The notes under the pieces are model-generated. The model had not been told where the DNA came from. It searched no databases and saw only the letters and a list, made by a program, of their open reading frames with translations. Below, piece by piece: positions 27,182 to 53,937 of a stretch of 64,000 nucleotides of DNA (position 1 is its first letter; every line of letters starts with the position of its first letter). Source of the DNA: Prochlorococcus marinus str. MIT 9313 (GTDB lineage Bacteria > Cyanobacteriota > Cyanobacteriia > PCC-6307 > Cyanobiaceae); contig NC_005071.1 in assembly GCF_000011485.1 (NCBI RefSeq), positions 434,001 through 498,000 of the forward strand, written 5' to 3'. The translations under genes were made by a program, and so were the position numbers.

Positions 27182-27484
27182 TCAGTATTTGAGATTCAAG
27201 AAGACACCAACTAAAATCAAGAGTACTGTAAGCAAGGCTGCCCATATGATAATCGGGCTAATTGAGGGATTATTTCTTTTGCTGAGGGCATCAAAAACCT
27301 GCTCCTGAATCTCCTGGTCAGAGAGCTCGACTACAGCTTCTGCCGTGGACTCATTTGAATCAATAAAGAGCGAAGCGACTTTTGCTATTGAAACTATATC
27401 TGCACCTTCAGCGGTTAATTGACTTTGCAGCAAGGGCTCTGATTTGAGCTTGGCAAGAAAAACTTTGAGCTGTGCTGCTTGCAT
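27182..27484 (-). CDS. Nif11-leader-like domain fused to a C-terminal membrane helix
   Basis: 100 aa from the ATG at 27484. Residues 1-50 follow the Nif11 leader pattern of prochlorosin-type precursors: A-Q-L-K-V-F-L-A-K-L-K at 4-14, L-L-Q-S-Q-L at 18-23, G-A-D-I-V-S-I-A-K at 27-35, and an E-L-S-D-Q-E-I block at 53-59 where precursor leaders end. Instead of a Gly-Gly/Gly-Ala cleavage site and Cys/Ser/Thr-rich core, the chain continues into one strong transmembrane helix at about 76-97 and ends N-L-K-Y; there is no cysteine at all. So this is a leader-like domain displayed on a membrane, not an ordinary lanthipeptide precursor. No LanM or peptidase gene lies in the window. Confidence 0.75.
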   Translation of the reverse strand: MQAAQLKVFLAKLKSEPLLQSQLTAEGADIVSIAKVASLFIDSNESTAEAVVELSDQEIQEQVFDALSKRNNPSISPIIIWAALLTVLLILVGVFLNLKY

Positions 27485-49970: not shown

Positions 49971-50406
49971 AGCGATGCCAATGCACGTTTTCAGTTATAG
50001 ATAGATCAACCGGAAGCCGAGCGAGTCAATGCCAAGCAGATGATCTACTGCCACATCAGTGAAGTTAACAAGCCTATCGAAAGAACGACTTTGCTCTGGG
50101 GGGATTTCATCAAGCTTCTTAGTCACGAGAAATCAAAGTAGATGCTTTTGATCATGATGCATAGAATTGGTTAAGCATCAAGTTCATTTAAGCCTTTAAT
50201 ACCTAAAAGAAGCTAAAGCAATTCAATCAAGGGAATCGTGCATGCGAAAAGTACACGTGCTAACTAAGCAGACATGAAGCTTGAAAAAGCATAAATCGTC
50301 CACTCGAACTGCCTCCTACTTAACAAGCAAGGCTCTTTTGAAAAGACGTTGTCTTGCATCATCAGGAAGTAGCAAGACATGATTGAACTGGTCTTACCCA
50401 ACTGCC
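49971..50406. other. Spacer before the NCS2-like permease
   Basis: 436 bp, AT-rich. A 33-codon frame from ATG 50040 to TAG 50141 reads I-Y-C-H-I-S-E-V-N-K-P-I-E-R-T-T-L-L-W-G-D-F-I-K and looks strikingly protein-like, but there is no ribosome site; it may be the end of a decayed gene. No clear terminator after the upstream gene. Confidence 0.35.
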
Positions 50407-52008
50407 ATGCATTCAGATCTCAAGCAGAAGCACTGGAGGCCGCAATGGTTTGTCCGTGGAGATGTCGACGGATTCCTAGGACTTGGCCTCGATAACTTGA
50501 TTCAAGTCCTCTTGATAATTGCCTTATGCCGCAACGTGCTCGGCTATCCGAATGAATTAGTTTTCGGCACAATCCTTCCTGCCACAGGAATAAGCCTGCT
50601 GATAGGCAACCTTGCCTACGCGCATCAGGCTCATCAACTTGCCAGCATCGAAAAACGTAGTGATCGGACAGCTCTGCCCTACGGAATCAACACCGTGAGC
50701 CTGTTTGCGTATGTGTTTTTGGTAATGCTCCCTGTGAAACTCACCGCATTGGGCCAGGGAATGGATGAGGCAAGTGCTGTTCGCCTTTCCTGGCAAGCAG
50801 GGATGGTGGCTTGCCTGGGCTCAGGGCTGATCGAAACAGTAGGGGCTTTTACAGCAGGGGTACTGCGTCGCTGGCTGCCTAGGGCTGCATTACTTGCCAC
50901 TCTCGCCGGCATTGCTCTTGGCTACATCGCCCTTGGCTTTCTGCTGCGTACCTATGCCCAACCTGTAGTGGGGCTGACAGTACTAGCAATTGTTCTGGTC
51001 ACCTATTACGGACGCTTGCGATTGCCCATTCCTGGTGGCTTGCTTGCTGTTGTTATTGGCGTGGGGCTTGCTTGGAGTACTGGATTAATCGATAGCGACG
51101 CTAGCCGTTGGAGTCAGGAAGCAAGTCAGATTGGCTTGCGCCTTCCTCACCTAGAAATCGCCAATCTTTGGAATGCTCGTGGCCAGCTGCTGCCCTGGCT
51201 AGGGGTGATTGTGCCAATGGGCCTATTCAACGTGCTGGGATCTCTTCAAAACATCGAAAGCGCAGAGGCGGCAGGTGATCGTTATTGCGTTCGAAGCTCT
51301 TTACTGATCGATGGCATTGGCACAATGGCTGCCGCAGGTCTGGGGTCTTGTTTTCCTACAACCATTTATATCGGCCATCCAGCCTGGAAGGAAATGGGGG
51401 CTCGCATTGGCTATTCCTGGCTAAATGGCTTGGTAATGGGTAGCGCTTGTCTTCTAGGTGTTTTTGGTTTGGTCGCAGAGTTGGTACCTATTGAGGCAGG
51501 CATGGCGATCGTGCTCTATATCGGCATCGTGATTGCTGCTCAAGCCTTTCAAGCCACTCCCAGCACCCATGCACCGGCAGTAGCTCTTGGCCTGCTTCCT
51601 GGATTAGCAGGATGGGGTGCATCACTGATCAAGGCTGGTTTGCGCGCAGGAGGAGCCGGAAGCAATTCAGAACCTTTTAATTCAGCTTTATTAGGAAGGC
51701 TTCAAGAAGCTGATGTATGGGCAAGTGGTGCTTTTGCCCTTGAGCAAGGACAAATTATTACCGCCATGCTGCTAGCGGCAATGTTGGTTTATGTGATCGA
51801 ACAACGCCTTTTAGCAGCAAGCTTTACTTCTTTCCTCGCATCTGCAGCCTCATGGATTGGGATCATCCACGCTTGGCGATTCACCCAGGCCGATACTGTT
51901 CTGGAGCTTGGCTGGGGAGTTGGTAGCTCCTGGGCAACGGGCTATCTACTAATGGCAGTTGTGTTCATGCTCGCCGGTTTGCATCAGCGCAGATTGATTT
52001 CTAGTTGA
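50407..52008 (+). CDS. NCS2-like xanthine/uracil permease family protein
   Basis: 533 aa from the ATG at 50407; a TTG at 50383 is less likely. About 12-14 hydrophobic helices. Segments such as L-P-Y-G-I-N-T-V-S-L-F, G-L-I-E-T-V-G-A-F and G-S-L-Q-N-I-E-S-A-E-A-A-G-D-R-Y match the NCS2 fold; the family is broad (purines, xanthine, guanine, sulfate-like) and the substrate cannot be read. The N-terminal V-R-G-D-V-D-G-F-L-G-L-G-L-D-N-L-I-Q places it near the regulator-less permease subgroup. Inner membrane, probably H+ symport. Confidence 0.82.
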   Translation: MHSDLKQKHWRPQWFVRGDVDGFLGLGLDNLIQVLLIIALCRNVLGYPNELVFGTILPATGISLLIGNLAYAHQAHQLASIEKRSDRTALPYGINTVSLFAYVFLVMLPVKLTALGQGMDEASAVRLSWQAGMVACLGSGLIETVGAFTAGVLRRWLPRAALLATLAGIALGYIALGFLLRTYAQPVVGLTVLAIVLVTYYGRLRLPIPGGLLAVVIGVGLAWSTGLIDSDASRWSQEASQIGLRLPHLEIANLWNARGQLLPWLGVIVPMGLFNVLGSLQNIESAEAAGDRYCVRSSLLIDGIGTMAAAGLGSCFPTTIYIGHPAWKEMGARIGYSWLNGLVMGSACLLGVFGLVAELVPIEAGMAIVLYIGIVIAAQAFQATPSTHAPAVALGLLPGLAGWGASLIKAGLRAGGAGSNSEPFNSALLGRLQEADVWASGAFALEQGQIITAMLLAAMLVYVIEQRLLAASFTSFLASAASWIGIIHAWRFTQADTVLELGWGVGSSWATGYLLMAVVFMLAGLHQRRLISS

Positions 52009-52851
52009 CAAAACTGTTTTCAAAATGCATAAGTTAATGAAATGAGCGTAGGTAAAACCACTGGATCAATTCTGCCCGACTGCTACATGTCACGCCTCTT
52101 CGTTTGTAAAATGGATGCCAAAAAAATATTTACAACGATGGCTGATGCCTAAGAGAATGACTCGATCCCAGTGGAAGGGAGGCAGATCTTCTCTGATAAT
52201 AACCTTGAGAATGTTATTGGTGGAGTCATGAGAGAAAGAGTTTTGAATGAAGATGCTGATATTAGGCTTGAGGGATTGTAAGTATTGGTTTAGAGCCAAG
52301 ACATTGATGGCTGAATTTATAGTGTTAAGTAATTACTTTTAAGTTTGAGATAGTTTCAGCACACCGCTTGGGATGAGTGTTCAAATGCCAAGATCAAAGT
52401 AAACCTAGCCACCCTATGATTGTAAATTATTTACTTATCTCTATGAAATACAACATCATTGATCCCCTAGATCTTATCCTGGAAAATGGTAGGCACTTCT
52501 TAGTGCGGTAGTGGAATTCTAGAAACATGGATTCGTTTTGCCAATAGAGAGGACACATTGAACAGTTAACCTGCCCCAGCCACCGAAAGAGTTTCACCAG
52601 CTACGCCTTTCAGTGCTTCATTAGAAAGGTTTTGGCGGCCTTTATTGTCTGCAGCTAAGTCTTCAGGGGCTTTTGGAGTCGCAAGAGATATCTTTATGAG
52701 GGGATAGAAGGCTGGGAGGTTGTGGCTTAGTTGGCTAACATGTTGACTAGTTTCTTCGCTAAGAATTTCAATCATTGTGTGCAAGTCTGGTCGTACTAAC
52801 AACTTGTATTAATGCGAAAAAAAACCATGTAAAGACTGAATTTATAGGCGC
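52009..52851. other. AT-rich accessory spacer with leader relic
   Basis: 843 bp between the permease gene and the hydrolase gene. Apart from the leader-like frame at 52566-52802, a 69-codon reverse frame at 52090-52299 is open but looks non-coding. The region is strongly AT-rich, unlike the genes around it. Confidence 0.45.
52566..52802 (-). pseudogene. Decayed Nif11/prochlorosin-type precursor
   Basis: A 78-codon frame ends A-P-E-D-L-A-A-D-N-K, then G-R-Q-N-L-S-N-E-A-L-K-G-V-A-G, matching the end of prochlorosin-type leaders (E-D-L ... R-Q-N-L-S-x-x-E-L-E-G-V-A-G-G). The Gly-Gly cleavage site is altered to G-E, and the nine-residue core E-T-L-S-V-A-G-A-G has no Cys, so no lanthionine ring could form. 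The N-terminal part in this frame does not look like a leader, but the +1 frame at 52771-52745 reads L-K-F-L-A-K-K-L-V, like the L-K-x-F-L-x-K start of Nif11 leaders; a frameshift is likely. Best read as a pseudogene of a lanthipeptide precursor. Confidence 0.5.
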
Positions 52852-53937
52852 TTATCTGGTCATACATAGTTCACAACAAATTGCATCAACGACTTTAGAG
52901 CTGAAATCATCACTGAATGGTCCTGAGTGACCACAATGGTTCATGCCGGAAATTTCATAGCGAGTCAGCTTCCTTTTGCGTTGCCATCGATTCCAGTTTG
53001 ACAATGGCAACAGTGGAGAACGCCCTGGGTAAGCCACTTGACCAAGAGCCGCAACAGGGTCTTTCCCGCCAACGACCATAGCCACACGATTGATCTCTTC
53101 TAAAGCGCCATTCCCACTGAACACTCCACAGACAGTGATCACTTGTACTGGAACACGACAAAGTTGTTGCAAGATCTCCGCTGTCCCAATAGCCATCTCT
53201 CCTCCTCCGCTGTAACCCACTAATACCAGGCGCACAGCTTTACTGGGATGGAAGCCAAGCGATTCAAGACGTCGGGCGATTTTCAAGGCAAGCTCATAAT
53301 TCATCACCGGGCCATAACGGCGGTCAGAGGAAATTCCCACTTTGATCACATTATTGGCTTGTACACAAAAGGCGCTTAGAAAACGAACTAATGAATTGGG
53401 ATGATGCTCTTGTAGAGAAAATAACCTTCGCCAGAACCACTGGCTGTATGAATCTGAACGCAGTGCAACAGGCATGATTGTGTAAGCCTCAATGCCTTTG
53501 ACTAAAATAGACTCATGATCAATTCCTTCTTCTAGTTGCGAGAGGAATCGACTCACCCGTGGAGGATGGTCTTCTTCACTTTGATGAATGCCATCCAGGT
53601 AAATGATGTAATGTCGATGTCCAGAAATGTCCGGGGATCGTTCAGAAAATAGATGACTTGGGTTAGGAAGACCATCAAGCCACCCTTCCCAAAAGACAAA
53701 GTCAAGCATCACTGAATAAATACCTGACAGAGGGACCAAGATGATCACCAGAAGTGCCGCAAGCTTAAGGAGCTCATCAATCGATTCGCTGGTTACTAAT
53801 GCAATAGCATCGCGACGAATCACAGCTAAGCACAGGAACAAAAGGGTGGCTAAGGCCAGCATCAAAACAACAACTGTCCTGCGGCTTGTAAGCAGCAGCT
53901 CACGATGATGGCGAAGCGAAGATCTAGTCTTAGTCAT
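52852..53937 (-). CDS. Membrane-anchored alpha/beta hydrolase
   Basis: 361 aa from the ATG at 53937. Two N-terminal membrane helices at about 21-41 and 58-79 (V-V-V-L-M-L-A-L-A-T-L-L-F-L-C-L and L-L-V-I-I-L-V-P-L-S) precede a soluble domain with the nucleophile elbow V-G-Y-S-G-G-G-E (catalytic Ser) and a late M-N-H-C-G-H-S-G (candidate catalytic His). Likely a lipase or esterase facing one side of the membrane; substrate unknown. Next to two other membrane genes of unknown function in the same direction. Confidence 0.78.
   Translation of the reverse strand: MTKTRSSLRHHRELLLTSRRTVVVLMLALATLLFLCLAVIRRDAIALVTSESIDELLKLAALLVIILVPLSGIYSVMLDFVFWEGWLDGLPNPSHLFSERSPDISGHRHYIIYLDGIHQSEEDHPPRVSRFLSQLEEGIDHESILVKGIEAYTIMPVALRSDSYSQWFWRRLFSLQEHHPNSLVRFLSAFCVQANNVIKVGISSDRRYGPVMNYELALKIARRLESLGFHPSKAVRLVLVGYSGGGEMAIGTAEILQQLCRVPVQVITVCGVFSGNGALEEINRVAMVVGGKDPVAALGQVAYPGRSPLLPLSNWNRWQRKRKLTRYEISGMNHCGHSGPFSDDFSSKVVDAICCELCMTR

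What the first reader, a model, noticed from the sequence alone, without database searches (positions are those of the whole stretch)
52566..52802. Relic of a prochlorosin-type precursor gene
Seen: the C-terminal half reads E-D-L ... R-Q-N-L-S-N-E-A-L-K-G-V-A-G, as at the end of prochlorosin leaders, but the cleavage Gly is Glu, the nine-residue core has no Cys, and the +1 frame at 52771-52745 gives L-K-F-L-A-K-K-L-V like a leader start. Inference: an inactivated precursor left after copying and decay, consistent with the family's rapid turnover of cores.
Basis: partly seen in the sequence, partly recalled or inferred. Interest (0 to 1): 0.6.

Follow-up and report, generated by a model that had tools for sequence, protein, structure and literature searches.

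The report
Fragment of a dead prochlorosin gene
A 78-codon reading frame in a Prochlorococcus genome carries, at its end, about 14 codons broken off a lanthipeptide precursor gene and joined to unrelated DNA, so it is a dead scrap that records how these peptide genes are cut and reshuffled, not a working gene.

Summary
The C-terminal part of the ORF (52637-52596, minus strand, RQNLSNEALKGVAG) is procA-derived. Starting from an intact procA gene of the same genome, the best DNA hit after all 30 intact procA genes and one other relic is this spot (E 6.6e-5). A procA leader profile ranks it second in the window. Of 127,912 14-residue words in six frames it scores highest.

LKFLAKKLV is literally present, but the leader's first 42 residues are not found in any frame beyond chance (39 of 400 shuffles score as high), although a leader 30% diverged with one indel is found in 99 of 100 controls. 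The upstream part of the ORF is intergenic DNA shared, without indel, with Prochlorococcus MIT 0701, where it has an in-frame stop and no codon bias in its changes; the shared DNA ends within about 8 bases of where procA similarity begins.

With no leader start, Gly(-1) changed to Glu and no Cys, it is best read as a non-functional leader fragment. A second decayed double-glycine precursor lies opposite at 52138-52281. Ordinary as a feature; mildly interesting because another procA relic breaks at the same leader codon.

The parts
52566..52802 (-). 78-codon ORF named in the finding (TTG start); chimeric, judged not a gene
52596..52637 (-). procA-derived leader end, RQNLSNEALKGVAG; keeps L-12, L-7, V-4, A-3, G-2 of the double-glycine recognition motif
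52569..52595 (-). tail ETLSVAGAG: Glu in place of Gly(-1), then 8 residues without Cys
52638..52645 (.). junction: shared flanking DNA ends at about 52645, procA similarity begins at 52637
   Evidence: 15-base identity to MIT 0701 drops from 9/15 (52645-52659) to 1/15 (52630-52644); procA match 52595-52637
52655..52802 (-). upstream part of the ORF; intergenic DNA shared with MIT 0701 (in-frame stop there), no procA leader signal
52261..52645 (.). segment without counterpart in MIT 0701, which has a different stretch here
52138..52281 (+). second relic: decayed short-leader double-glycine precursor, MADA*ENDSIPVEGRQIFSDNNLENVIGGVMRERVLNEDADIRLEGL*, stop at codon 5; MIT 0701 counterpart is open but has lost its GG

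Best explanation
The feature is a non-functional fragment of a prochlorosin precursor (procA) gene: about the last 14 codons of a leader of the RQNLSDDELEGVAGG type, left in an intergenic region beside DNA that shows no sign of ever having been procA. Shown: the DNA kinship of 52595-52637 to procA, the absence of a recognisable N-terminal leader part, and a sharp junction at 52637-52645 next to DNA shared with a sister genome. Inferred: it arose by a recombination or deletion that broke a procA copy inside the linker before the leader end, after which Gly(-1) became Glu and the core decayed. The 78-codon frame is then an accident of fusion and makes no prochlorosin: no leader start for ProcM, no proper double glycine for the exporter-protease, and no Cys for rings.
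For:: the three best non-self hits of the intergenic DNA in its own genome are all procA leader ends (E 2.6e-4, 0.078, 0.145); reciprocally, from procA L007, 31 of 43 rows (30 intact genes plus one relic) come first, this spot is next (E 6.6e-5), then second pieces of three procA genes, then nothing better than E 0.44; nhmmer E 3.2e-5; sequence model R1, E 4.1e-5, best in the genome outside intact procA; 34 of 42 bases identical to the nearest procA, while the short-leader family never exceeds 25 of 42; the flank shared with MIT 0701 stops where procA begins, changes fall 10/9/12 over codon positions, and MIT 0701 has an in-frame stop; the N-half is absent with adequate power; no orthologous ORF in 400 family genomes or in viral contigs.
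Against: The match is short (42-75 bases). R1's E-values are rough: one inspected hit at E 0.00135 (1665773) shows no precursor. The best protein match is not a procA but a short-leader gene elsewhere, 50% over 30 aa without gaps (E 0.03). The frame is still open and keeps L-12, L-7, V-4 and G-2, which a fully neutral fragment need not do. A leader start more than about 40% diverged could have been missed. Direction (gain here or loss in MIT 0701) is undecided.
Confidence: 0.76

Rival explanations
1. It is a relic of a short-leader double-glycine precursor (CCRG-2-like, about 30 leader residues), beginning near 52685, with its start codon lost, rather than of procA.
For: Ungapped 30-residue match to G000:C1:2238556-2238645 (MAKPKKPEDGVKPEEGKVELSNEDLEGVDGG), reciprocal, E 0.03, 0.0057 and 0.012; such genes lie next to procA clusters and another such relic is on the opposite strand at 52138.
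Against: At DNA level the leader end is 34/42 identical to procA but at most 25/42 to short-leader genes; blastn and R1 rank procA first; no hit to NF033456 for the ORF; MIT 0701 shows no such gene across the upstream part.
Confidence: 0.13
2. A full-length procA pseudogene, thrown out of frame by one indel.
For: LKFLAKKLV lies at roughly the right distance from the leader end.
Against: N-half profile with frameshifts is no better than shuffles (39/400); controls at 30% divergence plus one indel are detected 99/100, at 40% 83/100; MIT 0701 aligns without indel and scores worse (150 of 200 shuffles as high).
Confidence: 0.06
3. A young, working chimeric peptide gene that borrows the procA leader end for export.
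For: Frame open; protease-recognition residues kept; LahT150 tolerates N-terminal deletion of 30 residues of ProcA2.8 (PMC6363468, passages).
Against: Gly(-1) is Glu; 8-residue tail without Cys; no codon-position signal and an in-frame stop in the sister genome; promoter-like sites no more than in shuffles.
Confidence: 0.04
4. Chance resemblance.
For: Short match.
Against: 0 of 400 shuffles; best of 127,912 words; reciprocal DNA hits fall on procA.
Confidence: 0.01

Closest known systems
Prochlorosin precursors (ProcA; Nif11-like leader, TIGR03798)
   Same: Leader end RQNLS..EL.GVAG and its DNA, 81% over 43 bases
   Different: No MSEEQLKAF... leader start, Glu instead of Gly(-1), no Cys core
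CCRG-2 family short-leader double-glycine peptides (NF033456)
   Same: Short leader ending in LS..EL..V.GG; a weak protein match to one short-leader gene; the opposite-strand relic 52138-52281 resembles this group (MTDPKEN start in MIT 0701)
   Different: Leader-end DNA far less alike (at most 25/42); no profile hit for the ORF
procA 5' relic at G000:C1:1043839-1044022 of the same genome
   Same: Truncated procA copy, broken at the same leader position
   Different: Keeps the 5' leader and upstream DNA and lost the leader end and core: the opposite half

Membership tests
Prochlorosin precursor (ProcA) | Nif11-type N-terminal leader (MSEEQLKAF...) | tested here: not met
   No TIGR03798 hit; N-half profile 39/400 shuffles as high
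Prochlorosin precursor (ProcA) | Leader end with (D/E)ELExxxGG-type motif | tested here: inconclusive
   EALKGVAGE: motif and DNA kinship met, final Gly replaced by Glu. Motif as given in PMC10783134, passage seen
Prochlorosin precursor (ProcA) | Core with Cys and Ser/Thr for lanthionine rings | tested here: not met
   Tail ETLSVAGAG has no Cys
Prochlorosin precursor (ProcA) | DNA descent from procA | tested here: met
   for 52595-52637 only
CCRG-2 short-leader peptides (NF033456) | 18-residue profile hit at the cut-off | tested here: not met
   No hit for the ORF
CCRG-2 short-leader peptides (NF033456) | Short leader starting at an ATG | tested here: not met
   No ATG near 52685; CTT aligns with the Met of the short-leader gene
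Functional gene | Transcription and translation | not testable with these tools
   No expression data held

The most novel reading that the evidence does not exclude
procA genes are built of two exchangeable blocks, a 5' leader and a 'leader-end plus core' block, joined at a recurrent break point around leader codons 41-50. This fragment and the relic at 1043839-1044022 would be the two opposite halves left by such breaks, and three intact genes (L022, L027, L030), with 89-91% identical 5' leaders but only 56-67% identical leader ends, would be successful exchanges. That would give a route by which new cores are put on an old leader.
Probability: 0.18. Interest if true: 0.55.

Novelty: new member of a known kind. 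Interest (0 to 1): 0.3.

Why it matters
Pseudogene scraps of precursor genes are expected in a family with fast turnover. This one has some value because its break point can be mapped to within about 8 bases against a sister genome, and because a second relic in the same genome breaks at the same leader position with the opposite half kept. Together they make the question 'how are new cores attached to a conserved leader?' testable by comparing strains.

Tried and rejected
Full-length frameshifted procA: rejected by frameshift-tolerant profile alignment with a power control. Tail ETLSVAGAG as a second copy of the leader end (GTGGCTGGGG shared with procA): 9 of 300 shuffles reach the score, left open and not claimed. 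Hairpin arms CTCATC...GATGAG around the linker as a break hotspot: present in only 11 of 30 procA genes, not pursued. RNA families: none in 51900-53000. Promoters and terminators: counts about as in shuffles. Pfam and NCBIfam on the ORF and its short form: no family. Viral contigs: no relative. Literature: Cubillos-Ruiz 2017 (PNAS, recalled) is not held; searches listed no paper that I could see describing this fragment, but I saw only listings and, for PMC10783134, PMC6363468 and PMC8120280, passages. Of the 10 genomes of 400 with a match, I read the match only for G000, G001, G002 and G294; the short matches in G016, G044, G090, G110, G144 and G371 were not examined. The 30 procA genes used in profiles are those with loci (30 of 41 rows); the other 11 rows, mostly weaker or partial Nif11 matches, were left out.

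Full report
Setting. The window is positions 434001-498000 of a single-contig genome of 2,410,873 bases. That length fits Prochlorococcus MIT9313 as I recall it; no call names it. A sister genome, G001, is Prochlorococcus sp. MIT 0701: its contig of 414,082 bases is the one titled so. The ORF lies between a membrane-protein gene (50383-52008, plus) and a hydrolase-like gene (52852-53937, minus) (the functions are my reading of the translations).

The observation. The ORF 52566-52802 (minus) exists as described. It has no NCBIfam or Pfam match. Scanning every 14-residue word of the six frames with a profile of 30 intact ProcA leader ends puts RQNLSNEALKGVAG (52637-52596) first of 127,912 with 40.6, then RQIFSDNNLENVIG at 52180 on the plus strand with 30.7, then 21.3. 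These two best words lie about 450 bases apart in the same intergenic region.

DNA kinship to procA. In one search the intergenic DNA was compared with its own genome: the three best non-self hits are three procA leader ends (E 2.6e-4, 0.078, 0.145). In one search an intact procA (L007) was the query: 43 rows came back; the first 31 are the 30 intact procA genes and one relic, the 32nd is 486595-486637, which is this feature (81% over 43 bases, E 6.6e-5), the next three are second pieces of procA genes, and the remaining eight have E of 0.44 or more. A DNA profile of the leaders gives E 3.2e-5, and a sequence model of the leader ends (R1) gives E 4.1e-5. The R1 E-values are rough: a hit at 1665773 with E 0.00135 shows no precursor when read. 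The 42 bases are up to 34/42 identical to procA and at most 25/42 to short-leader double-glycine genes of the same genus (some rows labelled 'oth' there are procA copies that lacked the EEQLK tag, for instance because a locus end cut them, and a few are not precursors at all).

What is missing. A frameshift-tolerant alignment of leader residues 1-42 to 52644-52860 gives 21.3, reached by 39 of 400 dinucleotide shuffles; MIT 0701 gives 16.1, reached by 150 of 200; the C-end gives 42.5, reached by 0 of 400. As a control, the procA 5' leader mutated at 20%, 30%, 40% and 50% with one indel exceeds the 95% null level in 100, 99, 83 and 38 of 100 trials, with that gene left out of the profile. So a leader start as well kept as the leader end would have been seen; one more than about 40% diverged could be missed. 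LKFLAKKLV is therefore not evidence of a leader start.

The junction. MIT 0701 shares 52655 and onward (82% over the part inside the intergenic region, ungapped between 52655 and 52802) and 52060-52260 (82%), but not the DNA between. Identity falls from 9 of 15 bases at 52645-52659 to 1 of 15 at 52630-52644, next to the start of procA similarity at 52637. Differences in the shared part of the ORF fall 10, 9 and 12 on codon positions 1, 2 and 3, and the frame has a stop in MIT 0701. The upstream part is thus non-coding by these signs. Whether this strain gained the fragment or MIT 0701 lost it is not decided. No relative of the ORF was found in 400 family genomes beyond weak matches (6 of 400 at E up to 0.1, own genome included) or in viral contigs.

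The neighbour relic. On the plus strand 52138-52281 reads MADA*ENDSIPVEGRQIFSDNNLENVIGGVMRERVLNEDADIRLEGL*. The MIT 0701 counterpart, MTDPKENDSIPEEGRQTLSGNNLENVVVGV..., is open for 58 residues but has no GG. Its start matches the MTDPKEN start of short-leader precursors such as those at 2237807-2238481 beside a procA cluster, which score near or above the CCRG-2 cut-off; the counterpart itself has no family hit. CCRG-2 peptides are described as secreted small peptides related to prochlorosins, with a 13-residue motif ending in Gly-Gly (PMC8120280, passages).

Why it should not work. The protease domain LahT150 cleaves ProcA after the double glycine and needs suitable residues at -4 and -7; it tolerates loss of 30 N-terminal residues; typical motifs are GG, GA or GS (PMC6363468, passages). 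The fragment keeps L-12, L-7, V-4, A-3 and G-2 but has Glu at -1. ProcM is said to need about three-quarters of the leader (PMC10783134, passage); only about a quarter is here. The tail has no Cys. From these points I infer no modified product; none of it was measured.

The wider pattern. Another relic, at 1043839-1044022, keeps procA upstream DNA and leader bases up to about 148-152 and has lost the rest; this fragment keeps leader bases 148-190 (query 156-198, whose query begins 8 bases before the leader). Three intact genes, L022, L027 and L030, have 5' leaders 89-91% identical to L007 but leader ends only 56-67% identical. These five cases suggest, without proving, a recurrent break point around leader codons 41-50. 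Recombination-related proteins near procA genes and indels in the core have been proposed as sources of diversity (PMC10783134, abstract and passage), so the idea is in line with print.

Verdict. A real but ordinary finding: a decayed 3' fragment of a procA leader, not a whole frameshifted precursor.

Noticed in passing
52138-52281 (+): Decayed short-leader double-glycine precursor with a stop at codon 5 in this genome; the MIT 0701 counterpart is open for 58 residues but lacks GG.
   Followed up: yes
G000:C1:1043839-1044022 (L142): procA relic that keeps the 5' leader and upstream DNA but has lost the leader end and core, broken where the window fragment begins.
   Followed up: partly
27182-27484 (-): 100-aa protein with a weak Nif11-like leader part (TIGR03798, 25.6 bits, under the cut-off) and a hydrophobic, membrane-like tail in place of double glycine and core.
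   Followed up: no
L022, L027, L030 (intact procA genes): 5' leader 89-91% identical to L007 but leader end only 56-67% identical: looks mosaic.
   Followed up: partly
L158 (G001:C23:40600-41200, minus): MIT 0701 precursor with the Nif11 leader doubled in tandem before one leader end.
   Followed up: no
L025 (G000:C1:1017189-1017401): procA leader with an internal repeat, HRQTLSVGRQTLSESELEGLAGG.
   Followed up: no
G000:C1:2237807-2238645: Group of short-leader double-glycine genes directly beside a procA cluster.
   Followed up: partly
52257-52335, and L046 (G002:C67:4799-4875): 79 bases of the strain-variable segment are 77% like DNA in another genome of the genus, about 250 bases from a double-glycine-like frame at the contig end.
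   Followed up: no
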